NCBI RefSeq assembly: GCF_002778315.1
Contig: NZ_NESA01000007.1
Span: 1 to 64,000, forward strand
Source: Limnohabitans sp. JirII-31
Lineage (GTDB): Bacteria; Pseudomonadota; Gammaproteobacteria; Burkholderiales; Burkholderiaceae_C
Length of the DNA stretch: 64,000 nt
Reading direction: 5' to 3'
A program made the position numbers and the translations under genes. Positions 43,390-57,501 of the stretch are shown here, in pieces; positions within the stretch are counted from its first letter, which is position 1; each line of letters opens with the position of its first letter. The notes beneath the pieces were generated by a model. That model searched no databases. It worked only from the letters and a program-made list of their open reading frames with translations, and was not told the DNA's origin.

Positions 43390-45036
43390 TTACGCCCCCT
43401 CGCTAACGACGATCATTCCGTCATCTTGTCTTGCGGTGTAACGCACATCGCCGTCATAGAACTTCAAGGTCATACTTGATTTCGCCATATCAGTCACTTG
43501 CTCAACAATTTCATCAAGCAACACAATTGCATTCTTGTCGTACTTGTTGGGTCGATATCCATCTTTTAATTTTTGGAGAAGTTCAAATAAATTCAAATTA
43601 ATTGCAATTGGTTTTATAGATTGATCGCCCACTTTTAGATATGCCATGAAATGTGAGCTGGTGATGTGTGCTTTTTTATGAATTGCTTCGTAATCGGGCT
43701 TCAGTTCAACAGGGGCCGTCAACTTGACTTTGCCAAACGAACTAAGAAAGAGCTCGCCTTGAACATTTAGCAACTCAGGGGCATTCCTGTTTGCATATCT
43801 TTGAATTCCATGGATGAGATCAAGTGAATAAAACTTACGAAGCTCTTTCTTCTTGTCTGCGCTGTTGTCAAACTCGTTATGAAGTCGCCAAACTTGTGCG
43901 TAACTTTCCAAGAGTTCTTCTTCAAAAATAGATTTGAAATCGTGATGGAAATTGTTGCTAAATTCTTCATTTCTCATCAAACTAAAGAAACGAATCAATG
44001 AAGCCGCACTTCCTTGTTTAATGTTGCTCCTGTCTACAAACATGCCCTCGTAAGCCATTGCATCTAGGAATGCATTCAATCTTTCGTCAGGCAGTGAAAG
44101 CTCGTATTTCAAAACAAACTGATCAAGCTCTCTTGTGTGAATTTTGACGGGATCAAATTCAGTTAGACGAGCGACAAGTTCGTTGTCATCTCCGATGAAC
44201 AAGTTGTCAAAGAGATATCCAGGCCCAACTAAAAGATGATGAATTAAGTCCAATAGCGCCCGAGTTGTAATGAATTGATCTTTGATCAATCTCGCTTTGA
44301 ACAGTTGAGTGATGATGAGCTCTTGAACACTTTCAAGTGATAGCAATTTGTAATTTGCGACTACTCTTTGATCACCCCGACGCATCTCAGCATCTTTCTT
44401 TGCGACAAGAAAAAAAGGATTTGCTAGATCGGCACTAGTTAGCTTTTTCAAAAGCGTGCGAGCAAAGGCTGAGTAAGAACCACCTTCTTTTTGGAAGTTG
44501 AATCTCGCGTATTGTTCAAAGTCAAGGTAGTAGACGTTTCCGTCAGGAATAGGACGCAGGTTTTTGTTTAACTGACCGCTTAGGAAACGATCAATGGATT
44601 CTTTTATCTCTTGGTGACGCGCATCCCCCTCATTGGAGTAGTTTGCAAGCATCCCGATGTTGATTCCCAGAACTAGAGGCTTAGAACCTCGCTTGTGGTC
44701 ATCAAACTTCTCATCAAGGGCCTGAATAGCTGATTGATGAGGCGCAAAGCTATGGGTTGCATCTAGATGAAAGTCAAACTTTTGCTGATATTCGCTAAAG
44801 CATCTCGTCAAAATTTCAGACTTCCCATCGCCACTGCTTCCACACAGAAAGACAATTTTTTGCCCTTCAAGCGAGGCGAGAAGCTTCCTCAGATCCGTCT
44901 CGATGTCTTGCTGAACAAACAGCCAAGCTTTCATGTCATCGAGTTCGTCCTTTTTACGGGTAGAAACTGTCGTTACTGAAAATGGGGAGGATTTGGCAAG
45001 TACGCCAAGGGCTTTTGTGAGGGTAATTGTGCTCAT
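43390..45036 (-). CDS. dptF: Phosphorothioation-dependent restriction protein DptF/DndF
   Basis: 548 residues. An N-terminal P-loop FLCGSSGDGKSEIL (66-73) precedes a NTPase-like core. It heads the dptFGH operon, transcribed towards dndBCDE. Host DNA carrying phosphorothioate is protected, while unmodified invading DNA is attacked. The upstream gap carries island palindromes g and h. Confidence 0.9.
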   Translation of the reverse strand: MSTITLTKALGVLAKSSPFSVTTVSTRKKDELDDMKAWLFVQQDIETDLRKLLASLEGQKIVFLCGSSGDGKSEILTRCFSEYQQKFDFHLDATHSFAPHQSAIQALDEKFDDHKRGSKPLVLGINIGMLANYSNEGDARHQEIKESIDRFLSGQLNKNLRPIPDGNVYYLDFEQYARFNFQKEGGSYSAFARTLLKKLTSADLANPFFLVAKKDAEMRRGDQRVVANYKLLSLESVQELIITQLFKARLIKDQFITTRALLDLIHHLLVGPGYLFDNLFIGDDNELVARLTEFDPVKIHTRELDQFVLKYELSLPDERLNAFLDAMAYEGMFVDRSNIKQGSAASLIRFFSLMRNEEFSNNFHHDFKSIFEEELLESYAQVWRLHNEFDNSADKKKELRKFYSLDLIHGIQRYANRNAPELLNVQGELFLSSFGKVKLTAPVELKPDYEAIHKKAHITSSHFMAYLKVGDQSIKPIAINLNLFELLQKLKDGYRPNKYDKNAIVLLDEIVEQVTDMAKSSMTLKFYDGDVRYTARQDDGMIVVSEGA

Positions 45037-46791: not shown

Positions 46792-49071
46792 TTATGTTTG
46801 ATCAGCGGTATGGACTGCCGCGCTTTCTGCCACGCAGGTCACCTCCACCAAGTCAGCTCGAGGCTTGACGCTCATCACGCGCGCCATCTGGGCCCAGGTC
46901 TGCCCTACCCCAAATGCAAAATGCGTTCGCTCCTCACCGCCACCCGTTTGGATTGCAATGCTCGGCGCTTGCTGCAGCACTGCATGTCGCTCAGTCGCTC
47001 CACGCATCACACCAATCGGGTCAGTGACGGAACCATCCACGCGCCTCAAGGCGATGTAGTGATTCGCCCCTGTCTGCCAAGGCAACCGTTCAGAACAAAC
47101 CAACACCTTTGATGCACCATCCCAAGACAAGGCCTCACCACTCACGCCCCAGTTGGGCATGTCATGGCTGATGGCCACCAAATCCCCGTAGGCCGGGATC
47201 AGCCCTTCAAGCTCTGTCCTAAAAGTGATGATCCGTCTGCGGTACCGATTCGCCGCTGCGATGTACTTCCCCTCGCGCATCGCTTGGAACTTGTCGGTAC
47301 AACCAAAGAGCTTCAGGCGGGCAGGCTTTGACAGGGCCGAACCCGCAAGGGCTACTGTCACCTCATCAGGCTTCCAGCTCTTGGGATTGAAGTACTCCAC
47401 CGTAACCGCATCCGCTGTCGCATCACCTGGCATCACGTACTGAATCTTCAAACTGCTGCGCACGATGTTTCGGGTGGAGAACAAGGCCACAGGGATGGTC
47501 TTGGGTTCATCTCGAACAATGCGCACAATGCCGCCTTGCAGGAACGGAACTGCACGTCCAGCTCTGGCAATCTGCCCCATGGCGTCCCAAACCGTTAGGT
47601 TCTGGTCAAACACGCCATTGAACGTATCACCACGCGCAGACCACACGCCGTCGAGTCGACCGAGTGCATTCAAGTCAATCTTTGCATCAGGCAACCCTGC
47701 CCCGTAGCTCGAGCGCGCTGCATCTGCAAATGCCCAAGCAATCGAGCGAGTAGCTTGAGGTGAACTCCATCCTGTGGTTTTTGACCAAACAGGGAGCTTT
47801 CGTGTGACCAAGCAGTTCACCAAACGAGATGACCGTTGCGACAAGTTGTCCGTCGCACGCATGCGTAAAGCCAGCAAGGTCAAATCAGGCGGCAAAGTTG
47901 GATTGACCAGGTAGCCCTTGGCCTGTCCCCAGCGAAGCTCATGCCCAGCACGAGTACTGGCGTCTTTGGTGTCTAGCCTTTGAACACGCACCTCGTAGCG
48001 CCCGGCGCCCACTCCGTATTTATAAGTTCTGCGCTGAGCTGTGTTGGTGGCCGCCGAGTAAGACTCATCTGCAAGGTGAAGCCATCCGGAAGTGGCATCC
48101 CCATCGTCATTGATGGCTCTTGCCTCAACCCGCCATTGAACGGTTCGACTATCCAGCGTTCCACCATCAGTCGCGTAGTACAAGCCACGCATCATCACAA
48201 CGTCAATGCCAATCTGATTAACTTGGGTCCCCGCAGGGTTGAGCGCAAAGGGGCCAATGATGCTGCCGCCCGTATCAGCGACAGCAATCAATTCCTGCCC
48301 CGTCACCTCAGCCGCTGTCACCACATCGTTGTTGAACAAGGTGTTTTGACCACCCGGCTCAATGACTTGGGCTTGCACTTCTTCGAACGAAGAAATGGGA
48401 CTGTCATCAATCGACAGCTCTTCAAACTGGAAGTGTCCAATGCCGATCACATGAAGCTGGTGTAGGTACTCCTCGTTGTCGACGTACTCCGTATAGGGCA
48501 TCGCTGCCAAATCTGGATAAATCAGATGCTGCCCATACACAACAGGAATCGGCTGAGACAGTCGCCCATAGTTGCCACGCGCCTGCAGTGAGTAAGTTGG
48601 ACTTGGTGAAGATGAGCTGGCTGTGGCATTGGGCAGGCTCTGATTGGGTAACGGCACCAAGGCATTCACGATGATGGAACCTGTCACAGCAATTGCGGTT
48701 GATGCCACCGAAGTCGCTACTGCGCCTGAATATCCGAACGATGCGGCCAGCTCAGCGCCATAGGCGTTGGCCACGACCAATACGGCAATCATCAGAACCG
48801 TTTGCAACGGGTTCTTACCCCCGCCTCCACCGCCTTGCGGGAGCGACACCAGTGCGATGACATCTCCAGCCTCAATGAGGGTCACGCAGCGTTCAGCCAT
48901 CAGCACAGGCTTACCGTTCTTGAGCACCAGCGTTGGTTGCTCAAAAACGATCTGCTCTTGGTTCATCCATTGGCTGATGGTTGGATTGCCCTGAACGTGA
49001 TGGACATCACGCTCATGGGGATCGAATGGGTTTCGAAGCCAAACTACGACACCGTCATTGCTGCTTGACAT
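46792..49071 (-). CDS. TipJ-family tail tip / host-specificity protein
   Basis: 759 residues, shorter than lambda gpJ but with the same plan. The N-terminal part includes a Gly/Ala-rich hydrophobic stretch (VLMIAVLVVANAYGAELAASFGYSG). Next come hub domains (YGQHLIYPDLAAMPYTEYVDNEEYLHQL) and a gpJ-like middle (DNLSQRSSRLVNCLVTRKLPVW). It forms the central hub/baseplate that contacts the host. It overlaps the NlpC/P60 gene by 28 bases. Confidence 0.85.
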   Translation of the reverse strand: MSSSNDGVVVWLRNPFDPHERDVHHVQGNPTISQWMNQEQIVFEQPTLVLKNGKPVLMAERCVTLIEAGDVIALVSLPQGGGGGGKNPLQTVLMIAVLVVANAYGAELAASFGYSGAVATSVASTAIAVTGSIIVNALVPLPNQSLPNATASSSSPSPTYSLQARGNYGRLSQPIPVVYGQHLIYPDLAAMPYTEYVDNEEYLHQLHVIGIGHFQFEELSIDDSPISSFEEVQAQVIEPGGQNTLFNNDVVTAAEVTGQELIAVADTGGSIIGPFALNPAGTQVNQIGIDVVMMRGLYYATDGGTLDSRTVQWRVEARAINDDGDATSGWLHLADESYSAATNTAQRRTYKYGVGAGRYEVRVQRLDTKDASTRAGHELRWGQAKGYLVNPTLPPDLTLLALRMRATDNLSQRSSRLVNCLVTRKLPVWSKTTGWSSPQATRSIAWAFADAARSSYGAGLPDAKIDLNALGRLDGVWSARGDTFNGVFDQNLTVWDAMGQIARAGRAVPFLQGGIVRIVRDEPKTIPVALFSTRNIVRSSLKIQYVMPGDATADAVTVEYFNPKSWKPDEVTVALAGSALSKPARLKLFGCTDKFQAMREGKYIAAANRYRRRIITFRTELEGLIPAYGDLVAISHDMPNWGVSGEALSWDGASKVLVCSERLPWQTGANHYIALRRVDGSVTDPIGVMRGATERHAVLQQAPSIAIQTGGGEERTHFAFGVGQTWAQMARVMSVKPRADLVEVTCVAESAAVHTADQT

Positions 49072-49497: not shown

Positions 49498-50040
49498 TCA
49501 CCGGGCAAGTCCCGGAAACTCTGTCGAGGTGTAGAGCCGACCCGGAAATGCTTTGTTTCCGATATCGACCATTCGCGCTCTTGCAGTCACACGCATCACA
49601 TCCGCCTCCACCTCAGTCAGCACCAGCGTGATGGGAGGATCCATCTGAGGCCCCTCCATATCGTTTGACAAGTACGGTCGATAAGTGACTTCGATAGAAG
49701 CTTCTGACTCGGACGCAGCATCAAGGTGTTTGACGATCTCGCGGGAGACGTTGTCCAAGGTCAGCACGACCTCAGGAACCGGTGCAATGTCCACAGGTGG
49801 CAAATCCAAATCAAACCCCATGGCCACAAACCTCACTGTTTGGCTGGGGTTCAACGGTGCCGAGGCTTCGAGGCGCGCAAAGAGGTCTTGTTGGTCTCGC
49901 ACCACTCGGATGGCTGTCGTCACGCCCGACTCATTTTTAAAGTCAGGGTGACGCAGCTCCAAGGTATGCAGGATCACCACATCCGATGGCGCACTGGCAT
50001 ACGCCTCTCTTATGGCATCGGATAGGGAAGCATCAGGCAT
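49498..50040 (-). CDS. DUF1833 phage tail protein
   Basis: 180 residues from MPDASLSDAIREAYASAPSD, matching DUF1833, a distal-tail or baseplate family usually placed directly before NlpC/P60 and TipJ, as here. It overlaps the radical SAM gene by 8 bases. A longer frame upstream is the radical SAM gene read out of frame. Confidence 0.82.
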   Translation of the reverse strand: MPDASLSDAIREAYASAPSDVVILHTLELRHPDFKNESGVTTAIRVVRDQQDLFARLEASAPLNPSQTVRFVAMGFDLDLPPVDIAPVPEVVLTLDNVSREIVKHLDAASESEASIEVTYRPYLSNDMEGPQMDPPITLVLTEVEADVMRVTARARMVDIGNKAFPGRLYTSTEFPGLAR

Positions 50041-51397
50041 GAGATACACCAATAGGAATGACACGTCGCTCTGGCACACCTTGACTTGCCTCCACAGACA
50101 AACCAAAGATGTCAGAACGACTCTCAGGCAAATCGCCTTCAATGCGATAGACAGAACACCCTGTCAGATGTTCAAAGGCAGCGACAAAAAATGACACATG
50201 ATCCGAGTAGGCGTTATCACATGCGGCTTCCCACAAAGGCCCCTCCAAAAACATACAAGCACCCTTGCACGCCTGAAGAACGGGGCAATTCACGCACTCT
50301 TGGCGATGACTCCAGTGGGTCGAAGTTTTAACCGCCACAGAACTCAAGTCAGACAGATGACCCGCCTTGTGTGATTCCCCATTCGGAGCCATAGAGACCG
50401 CACTCACGTTTTGGCAAGTCAGCACATTGCCATGGAGATCAACGGCCAAGTTGTCTGCGTTGTCCATCCCGCATTTCTGCCCTAAAACCGATGCAGGCTG
50501 TCGCTCCAAAATACTCTTCACCCAATCTCGCATGCGGGCTCTTGCGACATCAAGAGAAACGATTCGCCCACGTCGAATTTCATCTAGTGACTGGCGACGA
50601 AATGCAAATGCCTGGTCGTCAGATTGCAACGAGTTGGCCAGACCACCTGCGTCATACGGATCCACGAATGCCCCCTCACCAATCACAAGAGTTGGATCTC
50701 CTGTGAGTTTGAGGAAGAACTGAGCGATCGCCTCTCGGCTGGTGTTGGTCCGGTGCACCATGGCATTGAACGAAATGCGCCGCTGCGGAGCCAAACGCTC
50801 ATACAGATCCAAGATCCCGGCTTTGGCTTGTGCGTCCTCCAGCGGATCAGGTCCACGTGCTGATTGCCCGGGACCGTCGTGACTTATCCCCACACCAAAC
50901 CCCATCTCATCAAGCCACGCATTGATTTCGGGGGTGAGAAGCGTGCCGTTGGTCACCATGCCAAATGAAGCATTTGGAAACTTAGCGCGCAAGTGCTCAG
51001 CCAAAGGTTTGAGCGTCTTGATGTACACCAGCGGCTCGCCACCCCAAAACTCAATCCGTTGCGGAGATTCACTCAAATTCGCCTCAAGCAAGGCCATGAA
51101 TGCAGGCACATCATCCTTGGTCGTTTCCTCGGCATGGGGCACAAACCTTTGACTGCAATAGTCACAGGCATAGTTGCAAGAAAGACCAAGCTGAATTTTT
51201 AAGACAGCTGGCGATGACTTAGCGCCGGGCGAAGATTGGCTAATCGCCTCAATAGCTCCAACGCTCCAACTTTTATCCACATATGGCAATGGCCATGGCG
51301 AACCGTCCGAGTCAAGCAGTTCACTTGTTTGGTTGTCGTAGCTGAGTGAAACATCCTGCCCACGACGATCGTGCGCTTTCAACTGAAATCGGGCCAT
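50033..51397 (-). CDS. Radical SAM/SPASM peptide-maturase-type enzyme in the tail operon
   Basis: 454 residues from MARFQLKAHD. The radical SAM cluster is CNYACDYC (C74, C78, C81; CX3CX2C), and FWGGEPL follows. A full SPASM domain has C-X13-G-X4-C (CGMDNADNLAVDLHGNVLTC), then CVNCPVLQACKGAC (CX2CX5CX3C) and a later Cys, enough for two auxiliary [4Fe-4S] clusters, as in anSME and RiPP maturases. The TAATG overlap with the 66-residue gene and the 8-base overlap with DUF1833 tie it to the tail operon. The substrate is not shown by sequence; the Cys-rich fibre is the best local candidate. Confidence 0.9.
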   Translation of the reverse strand: MARFQLKAHDRRGQDVSLSYDNQTSELLDSDGSPWPLPYVDKSWSVGAIEAISQSSPGAKSSPAVLKIQLGLSCNYACDYCSQRFVPHAEETTKDDVPAFMALLEANLSESPQRIEFWGGEPLVYIKTLKPLAEHLRAKFPNASFGMVTNGTLLTPEINAWLDEMGFGVGISHDGPGQSARGPDPLEDAQAKAGILDLYERLAPQRRISFNAMVHRTNTSREAIAQFFLKLTGDPTLVIGEGAFVDPYDAGGLANSLQSDDQAFAFRRQSLDEIRRGRIVSLDVARARMRDWVKSILERQPASVLGQKCGMDNADNLAVDLHGNVLTCQNVSAVSMAPNGESHKAGHLSDLSSVAVKTSTHWSHRQECVNCPVLQACKGACMFLEGPLWEAACDNAYSDHVSFFVAAFEHLTGCSVYRIEGDLPESRSDIFGLSVEASQGVPERRVIPIGVSHA

Positions 51398-51597
51398 TAC
51401 AAGTTCTCCTTTACTGTCGAATGCTCTAAATCTTGAAATGCTTCTGGACAGACCGCACGACAAACCTCTTGCGCGCTTTGAAATGGCAACTTAGCCAAGT
51501 GGTACTCACGACGAGAGCGCACACGCTCACCGTCCATGACTTCAACAATCAGCAGGACTTCTTCCTCACTGATTTCTTCAACTGATGCTCGTAGCAT
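51397..51597 (-). CDS. 66-residue protein coupled to the radical SAM enzyme
   Basis: MLRASVEEISEEEVLLIVEVMDG, a beta hairpin-like basic stretch (ERVRSRREYHLAKLPF) and a C-terminal helix with two cysteines (EVCRAVCPEAF). The size and beta/helix order recall a minimal peptide-recognition or chaperone domain; RRE domains are usually longer. It has no leader/core (GG or Cys-repeat) features of a RiPP precursor. TAATG coupling to the radical SAM gene and 20 bases of overlap with the oxygenase gene support a dedicated role. Confidence 0.65.
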   Translation of the reverse strand: MLRASVEEISEEEVLLIVEVMDGERVRSRREYHLAKLPFQSAQEVCRAVCPEAFQDLEHSTVKENL

Positions 51598-52279
51598 TTA
51601 TGTAACCTTCACTTTTAGACAAATTGCAATAAAGCTCACAGTAGTTGTGAGATGCGACGCGCAGGGTGACAACAAGCAGCGTTCGTGTGCCCTGCGCATT
51701 AAATGGATTACTCTCGTGCCAAACCCTTGAGGGGTGGATGACCACTAGGCCCGGATAGGTTTCGATGTGGCGCAGCTTTTCCCAAAATGGAAACCCCGCC
51801 ATGGGGCGGGGATCTTGAAGAATGAGCTCACCGTCACCAACGGTCCAATCGCGTTCTATAGGTGAGCGCCTGTCATGGCCACAATCCAAATAGAGACACA
51901 ACACATGGTCACAGGTATGGTGATAGTGAGGCTGCGCGCGCATACCCTGTTGGTAATGAACAGGTATGCACCTAGCTTCAATCAAAAGTTCTTCAGCGTT
52001 TCTGAGCCCGTGTGCTTGGGCGAGATAGCTTCGATAAAGCTTATCTACCCATTGACGAAACTGAATCCACACCGAGGGAGCCAGCGCCTCATGGATTGAG
52101 TGAAACAAGTTCAACTGAACCCTTAGCTTCACGCCCACATCAGGCAAAGAATGCTCCGGTGGATTGGCTTTGTGGTTTTTGAAACGCTCGACAGCAAAGA
52201 CCCTGAGTTGCTCAATCTGTGAGTCAGACCACGGAGCTTTATCGGTCAACACAGGCGTTGGCCAAAGGTTCTCAATCAT
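51578..52279 (-). CDS. Putative 2OG-Fe(II) oxygenase (third of three)
   Basis: 233 residues from MIENLWPTPV. The double-stranded beta-helix region reads PHYHHTCDHVLCLYLD (H118, H120, H121, D124), LILQDPRP, then YPGLVVIHPSRVWHESNPF (H188) and R199. This matches the pattern of the 2OG-FeII_Oxy_5-type family. Which early His/Asp bind iron is not obvious, so activity is less certain than for its two neighbours. It is a tandem gene in the oxygenase block, overlapping both sides. Confidence 0.7.
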   Translation of the reverse strand: MIENLWPTPVLTDKAPWSDSQIEQLRVFAVERFKNHKANPPEHSLPDVGVKLRVQLNLFHSIHEALAPSVWIQFRQWVDKLYRSYLAQAHGLRNAEELLIEARCIPVHYQQGMRAQPHYHHTCDHVLCLYLDCGHDRRSPIERDWTVGDGELILQDPRPMAGFPFWEKLRHIETYPGLVVIHPSRVWHESNPFNAQGTRTLLVVTLRVASHNYCELYCNLSKSEGYINATSIS

Positions 52280-52853
52280 TGCCCACCTCGCAAGCAAACG
52301 CCACCGCAATGCGCAGAGCATTGCAATACCGAGACATGGGTCGCACCGAATGTGGTTTTGTCCCATCAATGCAAACCAATCGATTTGGCTTAACCATTGC
52401 TGCAGCCTCGATTTCGCCGTCTTGGTCTAAAACGATCAAATCTCCACCCCAATCCGGATCCCATTTCTCAACGGGATACCAAATCACAGATCTCGCCTGT
52501 CCCGCAAACTCCTGTGGAAAGTCACGATGCAATGAGGCTTCGTCTCCAAACGATTGCACATTGACCCACACGCGGGTGAGTGAGACGCCTTTGAAAAATT
52601 CAGCCTGCACAAGGCGCGCCACATCAGCCAATGGGCTAGCCTCACGCAAAAACGCCTCAAACGTCAGGTCATGTCGCCATGCCCCAGCGTCATAGTGGTG
52701 CTTGTAGGTACCGGGAAGAACAAAGTTTCGGTGCCAAAAAACTCCCGAAGAACCCGAGTGCGCCTTCCATCCATAAACAAGGGGTTGCCCTAGCAGCCAG
52801 CTTCTGGTTTGGCTGACAAGCTTTGCATCGATGAAGTCATCCAAGATGTTCAT
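52272..52853 (-). CDS. 2OG-Fe(II) oxygenase (second of three), hydroxylase type
   Basis: 193 residues (MNILDDFIDAKLVSQTRSWLL). The clear facial triad is H109-R-D111 (SLHRDFPQE) and H168 (TKPHSVRPM), with R181 for 2-oxoglutarate. WGGDLIVLD lies between them. This is the prolyl/aspartyl hydroxylase pattern. It overlaps both neighbours by 4 and 8 bases. A protein target in the tail is plausible; nucleic-acid or small-molecule hydroxylation cannot be excluded. Confidence 0.83.
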   Translation of the reverse strand: MNILDDFIDAKLVSQTRSWLLGQPLVYGWKAHSGSSGVFWHRNFVLPGTYKHHYDAGAWRHDLTFEAFLREASPLADVARLVQAEFFKGVSLTRVWVNVQSFGDEASLHRDFPQEFAGQARSVIWYPVEKWDPDWGGDLIVLDQDGEIEAAAMVKPNRLVCIDGTKPHSVRPMSRYCNALRIAVAFACEVGND

Positions 52854-53437
52854 TGAACGACTCCCGAATTTGTCGACACCTTGAATTCAAAGTGGATTTC
52901 CACTGAGGGTCGCTCTCCGTTGTAGGGGTGAGAGTGATGCGCCAAATAGCTTGGAAAGACCAAAAGCATGCCAGGCTTGGGGTGGATGATTTCTGAACGC
53001 CACCCCTCCCAAGGCAACTTGCGGCTTCCGTACGCACCGCTTGGATTTACAAGAACAAATGCTCCGGAATAGTTTTGGCGCTCAGGGTCTGGGCGCGCAT
53101 CCGTATCCAACCAATAGACAGCCGAGAGATCTGTGTCTTCAACATGAAGTGGGATGAATTGACCTTTATAGGTAATCACCTCTCGGGCTGTAGCCTGATC
53201 AATAGAACACGCATAGTTATCCACAATCACTTTGCGAACAAGCTCGTCAAGCCCTTTGAATTTCCCATCCCCTAGTTGAGATAAGAGGCTTTGGCGATTT
53301 TGGCGTGACCAAGGCTGACCGTTGGGATTCAACGTTGCGTGCACGGCTAGCGCATGTAAATGCATCTGAGCCATCTGCTCTTGCGCAAATTGATGAATGC
53401 CTTGGTAGATTCGACAAGCAAAAATGTCACGTGTCAT
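52850..53437 (-). CDS. 2OG-Fe(II) oxygenase (first of three)
   Basis: 195 residues. PLHVEDTDLSAVYWLD gives H98-V-E100. PGMLLVFPSYLAHHSHPYNGERPSVEIHFEFKV gives the distal His (167-170) and R176. The order matches the 2OG-FeII_Oxy_5-type family known from cyanophages and marine or freshwater bacteria. It overlaps the Ig-like tail gene by 4 bases, as expected for a phage-borne modification enzyme. Confidence 0.83.
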   Translation of the reverse strand: MTRDIFACRIYQGIHQFAQEQMAQMHLHALAVHATLNPNGQPWSRQNRQSLLSQLGDGKFKGLDELVRKVIVDNYACSIDQATAREVITYKGQFIPLHVEDTDLSAVYWLDTDARPDPERQNYSGAFVLVNPSGAYGSRKLPWEGWRSEIIHPKPGMLLVFPSYLAHHSHPYNGERPSVEIHFEFKVSTNSGVVQ

Positions 53438-54261
53438 GTGATGTTCACCTCTAAATCTGCAGCCCCAAGGAAAAACTTGAAACCCGCCTTGATCCGAGCT
53501 TTGTCACCCGGCTGCAGTCCTAGCGCCATGAACTTAGCTGTCGCAGTTCCGTTTACCGTTCTCACGCGTGACTTGGGCAAATACCCGTTCACAGCTTCGA
53601 GATAAATCTCTGCGTCCTTTTCAAGCGGAGCTCCATCAGCGTCAACGATCTGTAGCTCGAATTCCACGCTTTCATTTGCCGGACATTCAGACGCTCCCGA
53701 GATACTCACATCAGGCATCACGATCAACTCGCGGACATAAGACGATGCGGAATATGACGTTCGAATGATGTCGGCCTCTTCCAAGCCGTAAATCTCACAG
53801 TCACCACGATCAACATCTGGACTGATGTTGGCGGTGATGACACAGTCATCAAATTGACTATCGGCAAATGGGACCGCAAGGCCAACCGAGAAGTTATTGC
53901 GATAGGTCGTCAACGAAAACTCAGGCGCAGACATGCGAGTCGGCAGTGTGACGGTGTACAGCGGAATTGGACGACTCCAGTCACGCTGATCCCATCGATA
54001 TGTCAAGTGCCACGCCTGACGGTCTGACCAAGCTCGGTTTGCTTTGAGCTCAGAAAATGAAAGGACCGAATCGGCAAGGAGTCGATATTCCTTGCCCTTG
54101 TTGATAAACGTTTCTCCTTCGAAACGGCTGTTGCTTGGCCACTGCTGGCTTGCCAAGCCCATCTCAAACGTGATCGTTTCAGCCACCTTATCCACATAGA
54201 TGCGGATGACATGATCAGGAACCGAGGCCATTGTTTGGGGGCGTGTGATGTATGCCTTCAT
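53434..54261 (-). CDS. Phage tail protein with C-terminal Ig-like domain
   Basis: 275 residues. The N-terminal part is beta-rich (HVIRIYVDKVAETITFEMG). The last ~80 residues (VEFELQIVDADGAPLEKDAEI, NGTATAKFMALGLQPGDKARI) resemble a bacterial Ig-like/invasin fold, common on tail surfaces. It lies nine bases after the Cys-rich fibre gene and is followed at once by the oxygenases, so it is a second candidate substrate. Confidence 0.65.
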   Translation of the reverse strand: MKAYITRPQTMASVPDHVIRIYVDKVAETITFEMGLASQQWPSNSRFEGETFINKGKEYRLLADSVLSFSELKANRAWSDRQAWHLTYRWDQRDWSRPIPLYTVTLPTRMSAPEFSLTTYRNNFSVGLAVPFADSQFDDCVITANISPDVDRGDCEIYGLEEADIIRTSYSASSYVRELIVMPDVSISGASECPANESVEFELQIVDADGAPLEKDAEIYLEAVNGYLPKSRVRTVNGTATAKFMALGLQPGDKARIKAGFKFFLGAADLEVNIT

Positions 54262-54270
54262 GCGTCCCCC

Positions 54271-54831
54271 TTAGCAACAACCGCAGCAGTTGCAATTACA
54301 GTTGCAGTTGCAATTTGTGCGGCAGTTAAAGGCCCCGCAATTGCAATTGCGGTACCAACGGTGGTATTCAGAACCACCGATTTCATTAGCCGCTTCGTAG
54401 TAGCCGTCGTAGTTGTAGCTAACTGGCACTGCATTAAAAGATTGGGTCGTGCCACCTGCCCCGTCATAGCTACCCCAATTGGCACAGTTGGTTGTAGGAA
54501 CGCCACTCACACCCCATGTCCACCAATTGCCATTGGGTGGATTCCAGTTTCCATTGCTTGCGCAATTTCCATTGGGCAAATAGCCGTTGCAGTTGGCCGC
54601 CCTATCGTCGTAATACTGGCTTGAACGGTTCATCTCTCCGATGTCTTGTCCATCCGCCATCTTGTAGCCCGTGTTGCGGGCATCATCGCTGGTCACACTA
54701 CTCTTGATGAGTGCACCATTGCTCATCGTGACGGTACCGGTCATCGTGCCGCCCGTCTTATCCAACTTACCGTTGAGCTCTGCTTGCAAAGCATCATCCA
54801 GCCCCGCTTTGGGGATGCGTGTAATTGCCAT
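54271..54831 (-). CDS. Short tail fibre with Cys/Asn-rich C terminus, candidate modified substrate
   Basis: 186 residues. The N-terminal segment KLDKTGGTMTGTVTMSNGAL is the standard phage tail-fibre repeat. A Gly/Asn/Trp-rich middle (YLPNGNCASNGNWNPPNGNW) follows, and the protein ends in a low-complexity tail with 11 Cys in its last 27 residues, most as Asn-Cys pairs (NCNCNCNCNCCGCC). Such a tail is unusual for a phage fibre and resembles a RiPP core. It is encoded four genes upstream of the three oxygenases and the radical SAM enzyme. Alternatives are disulfide or metal cross-linking of a fibre tip. Confidence 0.75.
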   Translation of the reverse strand: MAITRIPKAGLDDALQAELNGKLDKTGGTMTGTVTMSNGALIKSSVTSDDARNTGYKMADGQDIGEMNRSSQYYDDRAANCNGYLPNGNCASNGNWNPPNGNWWTWGVSGVPTTNCANWGSYDGAGGTTQSFNAVPVSYNYDGYYEAANEIGGSEYHRWYRNCNCGAFNCRTNCNCNCNCNCCGCC

Positions 54832-54843
54832 GAAATCTCCTGA

Positions 54844-57501
54844 TCAGATGTAGCGCACCACAATCCGCGCGTTGGCGGGAGGTGCAGAAGTAAATCGAAG
54901 TGTTGCCCCTGAATTCACAAGGACATAGGCTTCAAGCGAGTCTTGAACTACGTAATTGATGGTGACCATCAACTTATGGACACTAGATGCTGCGGTCGTT
55001 AAAACAAAGTCAGTGGCAGAGCCATTGGCCATGAAAACTTGAGGCGCAACGTTTGAGCCTCCTGCTGCAGCCGCGTACCCTTGCGCCTGATTCATGTAGC
55101 TCTGCGATTGCGTCGCAGAGTTAGCAGAAGCTGTAGCCGAGGATGCAGACTGACTTGCGCTTGTCGCAGAGGCACCTGCAGATGCAGCTGCCGCCGCAGA
55201 CTGTTGCGTTGCAGTTGCTGCGTTTGCAGCAATGGATTGCGCGTAATACTTGGCCGAATACTCCGTCGCACCAGATACAGGCCCGGAAGTTTTGTTCGCC
55301 CACTCCTCAGCCGCCGCTGCACCAGATTGCGCCTCCTTATCGAGATAACGAACGCTGATGCCAACACCATTGGCAGGAGCTGACGAAAACCTCAGCGTTG
55401 TCGTTGCAGGCGTTGTGTAGGAATCAAGCGGCGCTTGTGGAACCCCTGCCACCGTCACCATCAAAGCGCCGGGATAACCGACTGGTCGGCTCAGCGCGAA
55501 ATCTGTCTTGACCCCGTCTCCCGTAAAAATATCAGCTGGAATCACAGTGTTGGCCGTTACTGCTGCTGCAGAACCTGCCGCTTGCGACGCCCAATACTTT
55601 GCAGAGTATCCGGTGCCGTCTACCGTTGCAGACGTTTTCTCTGCCCAATCTGCGGCACGAACGGCCTGCGCCTGAGCAGCCGTTAAAGCCGTTGACGCAT
55701 TACCCGCACTGCTCGAAGCAGCATTGGCAGAGCTTGCAGCCGCAGTCGCACTTGCTTGTGCATCAGTCGCTTTTACTCCTGCCGTGCTGGCAGAAGTAGA
55801 AGCAGCCGTCGCGGATGCAGTGGCGTTGGTTGCACTACTCGCGGCATTCGTAGCAGATGCGGCTGCAGCAGTTGCACTGGTTTGCGCATCAGCGGCTTTG
55901 GTAGAAGCTGTGGTAGCCGAGCCCGCCGCCGCACTCGCCGAACTTGCAGCCCCTGTTGCTGAGGTCGATGCAGCGGTGGCTTGCGTTGACGCCACCCCCG
56001 CAGAAGCTGCCGCATTGGTGGCTGATGTCGTTGCATCTGTTGCTTTCGTACCCGCTATGGTGGCCGATGCAGATGCGGCGGTCGCGCTCGTCGCTGCATC
56101 GCTTGCTTTTGTTGTAGCTGTGCTGGCAGCTCCTGATGCGGAGGTTGCAGAAGCGGCAGCGTTTGTTGCGCTACTCGCCGCATTGGTAGCTGATGTCGCT
56201 GCCGAATTCGCACTCGTTTGCGCTTCACCTGCTTTAGTCGAAGCCGTAGTGGCCGAACTTGCAGCAGCGCTCGCCGAAGTGGTCGCCGATGTCGCAGAGC
56301 TCGAAGCACCAGTAGCTTGCGTTGTTGCCACCACAGCAGATGCTGCCGCATTCGTCGCAGAGGTCGCCGCGTCCGTTGCTTTAGAACCCGCCGTGGTAAC
56401 TGAACCAGCTGCTGCCGTTGCACTGTTTGCAGCATCACTTGCTTTTTGTGTCGCAGTTGCCGCAGCCGTGCTGATTGACTGTGCGTAGTATTTGGCGGAG
56501 TAATCACTCCCCGAAACAGGGGCTGTGGTTTTAGTCGCCCAATCCTGAGCCGATGTGGCACTTGAACCGGCCTGACTTGCGGAACTTGCCGCTGCAGTCG
56601 CACTCGCTGCTGAGTCAGTAGCCTTTGTACTTGCGGTAGTTGCGGAAGCAGCCGCCGCCGTGGCACTTGCAGCTGAAGCTGTTGCAGAGCTCGCCGCTTC
56701 ACTCGCTTTGGTTGAAGCAGTTGCAGCAGAAGTTGCTGAATTACTTGCTGATACGCCTGCCGCATCTGCTTTCGAAGATGCGGTTGTTGCGCTGGCTACA
56801 GATGCAGAAGCACTCGAGGCTGCACCACTGGCAGATGTAGCCGCAGCACTGGCGCTAGCTGCTGCTGCTTGGGCTTGGTACTTTGCTGAGTACTCGCTAC
56901 CTTGAACTGGCCCATTCGTCTTGCTGGCCCAATCCATTGAGGACGCAGCGCCCGTTTGACTCTCTTTGTCGAGAATGCGGGCCGTGATCTCAACGCCATT
57001 GACGGGTGGAGAACTGAAACGCACAGTGGTCGAGTTTGCCAAGGCGTAGGACACGAACGGAGTTTGTAAAACTCCAGCCACTGTGATTTGAAGCGCACCA
57101 GGATGGCCGACCGGGTAGTCAAGCGTGAAATCCGTCAACGCCCCAGTTCCAGTCCACGTTTTGGTTGGAATCACCGTCGCGCTGGTTGCCTTGTTCGCTT
57201 CATCAATGACGCGCGTCAAAGTGACACTTGCATCAGCCGCTTTCGTTGAAGCAAGCGTTGCACTTTGAGCGGCGTTGCTCGCCTGATTGGTGGCAACCGT
57301 GACTTGTTGCGTTAGCTCAGTTCTTGAAGCTGCCAAGTCATCCTGAACACCTTTGATCGCTTTGGCCACCGTCTTGACCGGACCACCCTCTGTCACGACA
57401 TCTGTATGGTCATTGCCATGGACGATCGAATGCAGAATCGTTGCGTCAGCAGTTGCCTTATCAACCACTGCTTCAATTTGTTGCTGTAGGTTTAAGGCCA
57501 T
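54844..57501 (-). CDS. Long tail fibre with Ala/Ser/Thr repeats
   Basis: 885 residues. The N-terminal adaptor (MALNLQQQIEAVVDKATADA) and two phage fibre modules (TDFTLDYPVGHPGALQITV and TDFALSRPVGYPGALMVTV) flank several hundred residues of AS/AT-rich repeats (SATNAASSATNAAASATSAS-like), as in lambda Stf-type side fibres. A TDFVLTTAASSVHKLMVTI module closes it. The repetitive coding DNA is prone to slippage and assembly error. It probably forms the trimeric shaft that displays the next two gene products. Confidence 0.85.
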   Translation of the reverse strand: MALNLQQQIEAVVDKATADATILHSIVHGNDHTDVVTEGGPVKTVAKAIKGVQDDLAASRTELTQQVTVATNQASNAAQSATLASTKAADASVTLTRVIDEANKATSATVIPTKTWTGTGALTDFTLDYPVGHPGALQITVAGVLQTPFVSYALANSTTVRFSSPPVNGVEITARILDKESQTGAASSMDWASKTNGPVQGSEYSAKYQAQAAAASASAAATSASGAASSASASVASATTASSKADAAGVSASNSATSAATASTKASEAASSATASAASATAAAASATTASTKATDSAASATAAASSASQAGSSATSAQDWATKTTAPVSGSDYSAKYYAQSISTAAATATQKASDAANSATAAAGSVTTAGSKATDAATSATNAAASAVVATTQATGASSSATSATTSASAAASSATTASTKAGEAQTSANSAATSATNAASSATNAAASATSASGAASTATTKASDAATSATAASASATIAGTKATDATTSATNAAASAGVASTQATAASTSATGAASSASAAAGSATTASTKAADAQTSATAAAASATNAASSATNATASATAASTSASTAGVKATDAQASATAAASSANAASSSAGNASTALTAAQAQAVRAADWAEKTSATVDGTGYSAKYWASQAAGSAAAVTANTVIPADIFTGDGVKTDFALSRPVGYPGALMVTVAGVPQAPLDSYTTPATTTLRFSSAPANGVGISVRYLDKEAQSGAAAAEEWANKTSGPVSGATEYSAKYYAQSIAANAATATQQSAAAAASAGASATSASQSASSATASANSATQSQSYMNQAQGYAAAAGGSNVAPQVFMANGSATDFVLTTAASSVHKLMVTINYVVQDSLEAYVLVNSGATLRFTSAPPANARIVVRYI

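What the first reader, a model, noticed from the sequence alone, without database searches (positions are those of the whole stretch)
49498..57501. A radical SAM/SPASM enzyme, three oxygenases and a Cys/Asn-rich tail fibre in one phage tail operon
Between the usual distal-tail genes and DUF1833-NlpC/P60-TipJ, the prophage carries a fibre ending in 11 Cys within 27 residues, an Ig-like tail protein, three 2OG-Fe(II)-type oxygenases, a 66-residue protein and a complete radical SAM/SPASM enzyme. Almost every junction overlaps. The motifs are seen directly. Radical SAM/SPASM enzymes commonly mature peptides, and 2OG-Fe(II) oxygenases hydroxylate side chains. The inference is that they modify the fibre tip (for example thioether bridges or hydroxylated Asn/Pro) to alter stability or adsorption. 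I know of no described phage system of this kind.
Basis: partly seen in the sequence, partly recalled or inferred. Interest (0 to 1): 0.92.

Follow-up and report, generated by a model that had tools for sequence, protein, structure and literature searches.

The report
Radical-enzyme maturation of phage fibre tips
This phage tail operon encodes a tail fibre that ends in a cysteine-asparagine repeat, next to a radical SAM enzyme that likely cross-links that repeat, and in the phage sequences checked the repeat and the enzyme almost always occur together even when the rest of the fibre is different.

Summary
In detail: a phage tail operon encodes a 186-aa fibre with 11 Cys in its last 25 residues, 2OG-Fe(II)-type oxygenases, a 66-aa protein and a complete radical SAM/SPASM enzyme. 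It belongs to a large phage system for which I found no report. Its constant pair is the enzyme plus a C-terminal (Asn/Ala/Asp)-Cys repeat ("CNC tail"). Starting from the enzyme, 33 of 35 assayable viral loci have a CNC tail. Starting from the fibre, 60 of 60 have the enzyme. Starting only from a DNA pattern for NCNCNCNC, 63 of 64 C-terminal tails with enough downstream sequence have the enzyme on the same strand. The tail sits on at least eight dissimilar scaffolds, sometimes just before a Hint or Peptidase_S74 domain. The oxygenases are optional. Some chromosomal relatives of the enzyme lie in clusters that look like peptide-maturation (RiPP) clusters. I infer that the enzyme cross-links the fibre tip through thioethers; this is untested. 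Cultured Achromobacter phage JWF has a Hint version and makes it testable.

The parts
54844..57501 (-). 885-aa Ala/Ser-rich tail fibre protein
   Evidence: PHROG tail fibre matches, best 2.7e-14
54271..54831 (-). 186-aa tail fibre carrying the CNC tail
   Evidence: ORF; weak PHROG tail fibre match, 18 bits; 145 homologues found, 112 of the 120 listed have at least 3 Cys-x-Cys in the last 60 residues
54271..54348 (-). CNC tail: last 25 codons plus stop, 11 Cys; likely substrate of the enzyme
   Evidence: sequence; residue between two Cys is N, A or D in 94% of cases over 118 distinct tails
53434..54261 (-). 275-aa protein of unknown fold ('Ig-like' by appearance), frequent partner
   Evidence: profile found in 116 of 154 loci with tail and enzyme; no Pfam/PHROG/NCBIfam match
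52850..53437 (-). 2OG-Fe(II)-type oxygenase C (195 aa)
   Evidence: PF13759 31.6 bits, cut-off 27; HxE and distal H conserved in 23 relatives
52272..52853 (-). 2OG-Fe(II)-type oxygenase B (193 aa)
   Evidence: PF13640 35.7 bits, cut-off 27; HxD, distal H and R conserved in 27 relatives
51578..52279 (-). putative 2OG-Fe(II) oxygenase A (233 aa; ORF open from 52369)
   Evidence: PF13759 23 bits, below cut-off 27; phrog_81 4e-10
51397..51597 (-). 66-aa protein of unknown function
   Evidence: related short ORFs found in 21 of 154 loci; alignment of 10
50033..51397 (-). radical SAM/SPASM enzyme (454 aa)
   Evidence: AlphaFold2 pLDDT 89.1; top Foldseek PDB matches are peptide- and protein-modifying SPASM enzymes
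49498..50040 (-). DUF1833 tail protein, backbone marker
   Evidence: PF08875 145.6 bits
   Evidence: phrog_329 1e-16
46792..49071 (-). tail tip protein TipJ / central tail fibre J
   Evidence: phrog_469 5e-140, phrog_31 8e-106

Best explanation
The phage-encoded radical SAM/SPASM enzyme likely acts on the C-terminal Cys-(Asn/Ala/Asp) repeat of the tail fibre encoded beside it and is predicted to join cysteine sulfurs to carbons of the interleaved Asn, Ala or Asp residues, which would give a rigid, thioether-stapled fibre tip. Shown by sequence: tail and enzyme form a cassette that is swapped as a unit on a conserved tail backbone. Shown: the tail stays while the fibre scaffold changes, and it usually ends the protein; in a minority it runs into a Hint-like or Peptidase_S74 domain. 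Inferred: those domains cut themselves off and so make the tail the mature tip. Inferred: the tail is the substrate and a thioether is the product. Inferred: the oxygenases are optional tailoring enzymes. Inferred: the gain is stability or grip of the tip at the host surface.
For: Enzyme-first: 33 of 35 assayable viral loci have a Cys-x-Cys-rich ORF on the same strand, 2 on the opposite strand; in genomes 45 of 58, 47 with two short tails read by eye. Fibre-first: 60 of 60 assayable loci have the enzyme. Homology-free: 63 of 64 C-terminal NCNCNCNC proteins with at least 2.7 kb downstream have a radical SAM gene on the same strand, and 0 of 91 on the opposite strand. Backbone-matched: 16 loci with both, 4 with neither, 0 with one only. 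At least eight dissimilar scaffolds. Position X of CXC is N 65.5%, A 19.4%, D 9.1% over 118 distinct tails; Asn, Ala and Asp are reported thioether acceptors (passages of PMC8172795, PMC8326336). Nearest solved structures and profiles are SPASM maturases: ChlB, CteB, anSME, TigE, SkfB, SuiB, PapB and QhpD families. Some chromosomal relatives lie beside YcaO or C39 exporter genes. Hint or S74 domains follow the tail in several proteins.
Against: No chemistry was seen. Phage-type misses: L052 and L055 (same phage type, degenerate tail), L216, and L384 in the pattern test (3.6 kb downstream without the enzyme). Eleven of 12 internal NCNCNCNC runs have no enzyme in view. Chromosomal relatives work without a CNC tail, and three of seven enzyme-bearing genomes of the order lack it. 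All named NCBIfam maturase families score far below cut-off (65 vs 340 bits for PapB). The model shows no RRE-like helical domain before the radical SAM barrel. The fibre model is poor. Campylobacter phage CP220 has 11 reported radical SAM genes but no CNC tail in the 150 of 177.5 kb scanned.
Confidence: 0.6

Rival explanations
1. The enzyme acts on the tail but with other chemistry: Cys to formylglycine as in anSME, epimerisation, or carbon-carbon cyclophane formation. A tip carrying aldehydes could bond to the host surface.
For: anSME is among the nearest structures; cyclophane and sulfatase maturase families score close to thioether ones.
Against: The tail has many Cys with N/A/D at nearly every other place, and the best-scoring profile (PapB) belongs to a thioether-forming family.
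Confidence: 0.25
2. The tail is a metal-binding, metallothionein-like tip (Cys-x-Cys motif, recalled); the enzyme makes an unusual ligand, helps cluster assembly, or acts elsewhere.
For: Dense Cys-x-Cys repeats.
Against: A metal site alone does not explain an enzyme beside 63 of 64 tails.
Confidence: 0.09
3. The enzyme is a passenger or auxiliary metabolic gene that happens to sit in the variable fibre region.
For: Radical SAM cassettes are reported in the variable host-recognition cluster of pelagimyophages (passages of PMC7029224), and Campylobacter phage radical SAM genes were read as metabolic (passages of PMC2853527).
Against: Position alone does not explain why a tail found by DNA pattern is nearly always followed by the enzyme, why scaffolds change while the tail persists, or why two intact fibres on a related backbone without the enzyme are Cys-poor (L422, L423).
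Confidence: 0.06

Closest known systems
Sactipeptide / ranthipeptide maturases (CteB, SkfB, PapB, RumMC)
   Same: Radical SAM/SPASM fold, Cys-rich substrate, acceptors that include Asn, Ala and Asp
   Different: Substrate here is the C terminus of a phage tail protein, not a secreted peptide with a leader; no RRE seen in the model; scores far below family cut-offs
QhpD (thioether maturase of a quinohemoprotein subunit)
   Same: SPASM enzyme that cross-links Cys in a larger protein rather than a small peptide (TIGR03906 59 bits; passage of PMC8326336)
   Different: Different operon, substrate and motif; below cut-off of 453 bits
Anaerobic sulfatase-maturating enzyme (anSME)
   Same: Close structural match; JWF's enzyme bears this name in one record
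   Different: No sulfatase gene was seen among the annotated or profiled genes beside it, and the substrate motif differs
Peptidase_S74 and Hint auto-processing domains
   Same: Follow the CNC tail directly in some members
   Different: Here they sit behind a short Cys repeat with a radical SAM gene beside it
Radical SAM genes reported in phages (Campylobacter CP220, pelagimyophages)
   Same: Phage radical SAM genes; in pelagimyophages inside the host-recognition cluster (passages)
   Different: The passages I read name no Cys-rich substrate or virion modification; no CNC tail in the 150 kb of CP220 scanned

Membership tests
Radical SAM superfamily | CxxxCxxC cluster motif and PF04055 above cut-off | tested here: met
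   CNYACDYC; 33.5 bits, cut-off 29.5
SPASM domain proteins | seven conserved auxiliary-cluster Cys; TIGR04085 above cut-off | tested here: met
   32.3 bits, cut-off 27; invariant Cys in 28 and 42 relatives
PapB-type ranthipeptide maturases (NF047865) | score above curated cut-off | tested here: not met
   65.2 bits against 340
QhpD (TIGR03906) | score above curated cut-off | tested here: not met
   59 bits against 453
RiPP biosynthesis | recognition element (RRE) fused to the maturase | tested here: inconclusive
   model shows three short strands and no helix before residue 116; the 66-aa protein was not modelled
RiPP biosynthesis | leader removal and release of a small peptide | tested here: inconclusive
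   no exporter or leader peptidase among the genes profiled beside the window's enzyme; a C-terminal tail is used instead
Sactipeptides / ranthipeptides | S-to-carbon thioether | not testable with these tools
   needs mass spectrometry
2OG-Fe(II) oxygenases (B and C) | Pfam cut-off and HxD/E...H residues | tested here: met
2OG-Fe(II) oxygenases (A) | Pfam cut-off and HxD/E...H residues | tested here: inconclusive
   23 bits, cut-off 27; H128, H130, D134, H198 of a relative conserved, spacing not standard
Phage tail fibres | match to tail-fibre families and place in the tail operon | tested here: inconclusive
   position fits; PHROG match only 18 bits for the window protein, stronger for the JWF and L046 versions; model poor
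Metallothioneins | metal binding by Cys-x-Cys | not testable with these tools
   motif only

The most novel reading that the evidence does not exclude
Many tailed phages mature their own fibre tips with peptide-natural-product chemistry: almost any fibre can be given a portable C-terminal Cys-(Asn/Ala/Asp) tag, exposed where needed by a self-cleaving Hint or S74 domain, and a phage radical SAM/SPASM enzyme knits the tag into a covalent thioether knot that hardens the tip or grips the host, with optional oxygenases decorating it. It would be a general maturation system for virion proteins, spread over phages of Burkholderiales, Alphaproteobacteria and others.
Probability: 0.45. Interest if true: 0.96.

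Novelty: categorically new. Interest (0 to 1): 0.9.

Why it matters
If true, phages use radical peptide chemistry on their own virion proteins. I found no report of that in eight open-access full-text searches (listings only, apart from the papers whose passages are cited; subscription journals and preprints were not searched). The enzyme superfamily is known; the new part is the substrate class, the portable tail tag and the cassette swapped as a unit. It would offer a function for some phage radical SAM genes that have been filed as metabolic, add a covalent layer to models of host recognition, and suggest a portable tag for stapling proteins. It can be tested in cultured phage JWF and in isolates such as Limnohabitans or Thalassobacter that carry the genes.

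Tried and rejected
(1) A first screen for at least 7 Cys in 30 residues missed the Hint type in JWF and the short CNC proteins; replaced by counting Cys-x-Cys. (2) The clustering script dropped two proteins as 'odd'; one of them, L194, is a true CNC tail (ACDCACACDCACNC) and is therefore labelled 'none' in the tree. Of the other nine 'none' rows, five (L028, L036, L188, L198, L213) are cut off before the fibre gene, L242 is a short piece of the window itself, L179 has a family fibre that leaves frame, L052 has a degenerate tail and L216 has no tail. (3) Five of the 79 viral enzyme loci (L083-L087) match over 93 residues at 32% identity and were left out of counts. (4) My first pattern tally used the 80 listed of 120 stretches and gave 41 of 41; on recount I took all 118 loci that I could identify as held, which gave 63 of 64 and one miss, L384. 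(5) Campylobacter phage CP220: no CNC tail in 150 of 177.5 kb. (6) Xylophilus phage Lumi: no CNC tail in the 20.5 kb around its tail-tip gene, and it was not among the enzyme hits. (7) The fibre model is too poor to use. (8) The 275-aa protein has no PDB relative, best E 0.067. (9) A DNA pattern over 399 genomes was swamped by hexanucleotide repeats and is not used as a count. (10) Direct fibre searches in named phages and plasmids found nothing. (11) Rejected: 'all three oxygenases belong to the core'.
Full report
WHAT IS THERE. The 186-aa fibre ends in 25 residues with 11 Cys, the densest of 481 ORFs in the window. The enzyme has the radical SAM motif and all seven SPASM cysteines. Oxygenase A is below the Pfam cut-off. 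In the protein database 145 homologues of the fibre were found; 112 of the 120 listed have at least three Cys-x-Cys in their last 60 residues.

THE TAIL AND THE ENZYME GO TOGETHER. Three searches with different starting points were made. (a) From the enzyme: 79 viral loci (the best 80 of 83 relatives were kept), 74 of them family members at 140 bits or more. 35 of the 74 have at least 3.5 kb upstream and 1.2 kb downstream, and 33 of the 35 carry a Cys-x-Cys-rich ORF on the same strand within 7.5 kb, against 2 on the opposite strand. The two misses, L052 and L055, are one phage type that keeps the usual scaffold with a degenerate tail. (b) From the fibre: 80 loci (best 80 of 93), 72 newly held. 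60 of the 72 have at least 2.3 kb after a CNC tail and all 60 have the enzyme; 12 could not be assayed. Eleven of the 60 lie on contigs already seen in (a). (c) Without homology: a DNA pattern for Asn-Cys four times over, in viral contigs. I examined 118 loci: 103 encode the motif in frame, 91 within 20 residues of the C terminus. Of these 91, 64 have at least 2.7 kb downstream and 63 of the 64 have a radical SAM gene on the same strand; none of the 91 has one on the opposite strand. The miss is L384, with 3.6 kb downstream; among the hits the gap reaches 5.4 kb, so its enzyme may lie outside the stretch. Of 12 internal runs one (L291) has the enzyme in view and 11 do not. The enzymes reach well beyond one close family: the best match is only 102 and 91 bits in L337 and L361, and L286 and L325 carry four and three radical SAM genes of 40-151 bits.

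GENOMES. From the enzyme in GTDB species genomes: 80 loci (best 80 of 108), 58 assayable, 45 with a tail by the rule and 1 on the opposite strand. Two more (L234, L240) have short tails read by eye, making 47 of 58. The 11 without are L179 (a family fibre that runs out of frame), L216 (phage-like, no tail), L237 (enzyme fragment) and eight loci that look chromosomal rather than phage (L218, L220, L221, L227, L233, L235, L239, L241). In 399 genomes drawn from the window's order 7 have the enzyme. Four of these have a CNC tail beside it (the window genome, G060, G129, G110) and three do not (G035, G080, G154).

SWAPPED AS A UNIT. With DUF1833 as anchor (44 viral loci), 20 loci have at least 5.5 kb upstream. 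16 have both tail and enzyme, 4 have neither, none has only one. Two of the four (L422, L423) are intact and carry Cys-poor fibres; L420 and L424 look broken or chimeric. DUF1833 is 93-96% identical to the window's in 13 of the 16, yet at least three different fibre-plus-enzyme cassettes occur on this backbone: the window type, the RYNCNCDCNCC type (L398, L403, L405 and others) and the type of L102-L104. Three of the 20 loci (L396, L421 and the L102-L104 set) overlap contigs counted above.

THE TAIL IS A PORTABLE TAG. Outside the tail, 177 of 178 CNC proteins (one was too short) fall into 11 groups without detectable similarity at E 1e-4 over 40 residues. Two groups are truncated pieces, so I claim at least eight scaffolds, among them 92-113-aa proteins in tandem (L035, L038), a 2046-aa protein (L034) and several fibre types. 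Over 118 distinct tails the residue between two Cys is N 65.5%, A 19.4%, D 9.1%. In 214 of 237 proteins at most 6 residues follow the last Cys, and in two 18 or 20. Of the 21 with more, nine run into Hint-like sequence (L088, L089, L065, L129, L145, L146, L209 and two in L250), three (L046-L048) into Peptidase_S74, eight share an unnamed domain, and one is internal in L034. Of the Hint-like ones scanned against Pfam, L089 passes the cut-off, L065, L145 and L209 match below it and L129 has no match; L250 was scanned once with no match; the rest rest on sequence appearance. L046 just passes the S74 cut-off (22.5 against 22 bits). L153, a further Hint case above cut-off, lies in a locus too short to hold the enzyme. 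That these domains cleave themselves is recalled, not tested here. Two cultured Achromobacter phages, JWF and 2-1, have the Hint version with the enzyme downstream. JWF was isolated from sewage (record) and is listed as a temperate siphovirus (passages of PMC3899368).

WHAT THE ENZYME LOOKS LIKE. The AlphaFold2 model is good (pLDDT 89.1). Its first distinct PDB matches are ChlB, CteB, anSME, TigE, SkfB and SuiB (some names and functions recalled); later ranks include EpeE, viperins and others. Profiles agree: TigE and CteB lead in the PDB sequence search, and PapB, geopeptide and QhpD maturases lead in NCBIfam, all far below their cut-offs. Some chromosomal relatives stand beside YcaO plus nitroreductase genes (L218; L221, SagD-like but below cut-off) or C39-peptidase exporters (L206; L249), as in peptide maturation. 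The others were not scanned. In L218, L221, L227, L235 and L239 a 64-118-aa ORF lies at or just before the enzyme start, in L227 and L235 with a DCGC motif. In a tree of 106 enzymes the 11 chromosomal rows need 3 changes against 10.7 in shuffles and lie in several places among phage ones (quick method, long branches), so the family seems to have moved between phages and chromosomes.

MECHANISM. My best reading is thioether formation between tail Cys and the interleaved N, A or D residues. Reviews report Cys-Asn and Cys-Ala links in ruminococcin C1, Cys-Asn in NxxcA and Cys-Asp in freyrasin (passages of PMC8172795 and PMC8326336). That the enzyme acts on the tail I hold at about 0.85; a thioether product at about 0.6 overall. 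The oxygenases are optional (81 of 154 loci; a lower bound because loci are cut and other 2OG families are missed). The 275-aa protein is more constant (116 of 154) and the 66-aa protein less so (21 of 154).

KNOWN OR NOT. Eight open-access full-text searches on this question gave no phage system of this kind in their listings. Phage radical SAM genes are reported in Campylobacter phages (PMC2853527) and in the host-recognition cluster of pelagimyophages (PMC7029224); in the passages I saw no protein substrate is named. NCBIfam has an 'FlmC' oxygenase and an 'FlmE/OhkG' radical SAM family that match weakly. They may mark a described peptide system with both enzyme types; I could not read about it.

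LIMITS. Loci are not dereplicated beyond identical contigs, so counts of loci exceed counts of independent events; the scaffold groups and the enzyme tree are the better guide. CNC calls depend on a simple Cys-x-Cys count. Host labels of metagenome-assembled genomes (for example Bacteroidetes for L162) may be binning errors. The window is called a prophage because it lies in a bacterial genome contig beside tail and lysis genes; I did not look for an integrase or the borders.

Noticed in passing
window 43390-45036 (-): A DptF gene (DNA phosphorothioation-dependent restriction, TIGR03238, 472.6 bits, cut-off 50) lies next to the phage lysis genes; it may mark the prophage border or a carried defence gene.
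   Followed up: partly
L286 3051-11662 and L325 240-6597 (-): Clusters of four and three radical SAM genes beside a 67-79-aa protein ending ...YSTACNCNCNCNC; possibly several modifications on one small tail protein.
   Followed up: no
L250 7012-19499 (-): Five radical SAM ORFs and two CNC proteins running into Hint-like sequence; one CNC protein starts with what looks like a Tat-type signal, so this locus may not be a phage.
   Followed up: no
L218, L221, L227, L235, L239, just upstream of the enzyme: Short ORFs (64-118 aa) before chromosomal relatives of the enzyme, some with a DCGC motif, next to YcaO-type genes where scanned: possible uncharacterised RiPP precursors.
   Followed up: partly
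L217, L223-L226, L229-L232, L236: Rhodobacteraceae loci, including isolates Thalassobacter stenotrophicus, Nereida ignava and Thalassovita autumnalis, carry CNC protein, 2OG oxygenase and enzyme after phage-tail-like genes.
   Followed up: partly
window 52272-52853 (-): PHROG phrog_274 is labelled 'DNA endonuclease V', but the window member matches 2OG-Fe(II) oxygenase in Pfam; the PHROG label looks wrong.
   Followed up: no
L030 4056-10395: One phage contig holds two tail-enzyme pairs: a 95-aa CNC protein followed by its own enzyme, and a fibre-type CNC protein followed by another.
   Followed up: no
L132, L135, L137, L140-L143 and others: A second, smaller radical SAM gene (335-340 aa) stands before the main enzyme in a subset of phages.
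   Followed up: no
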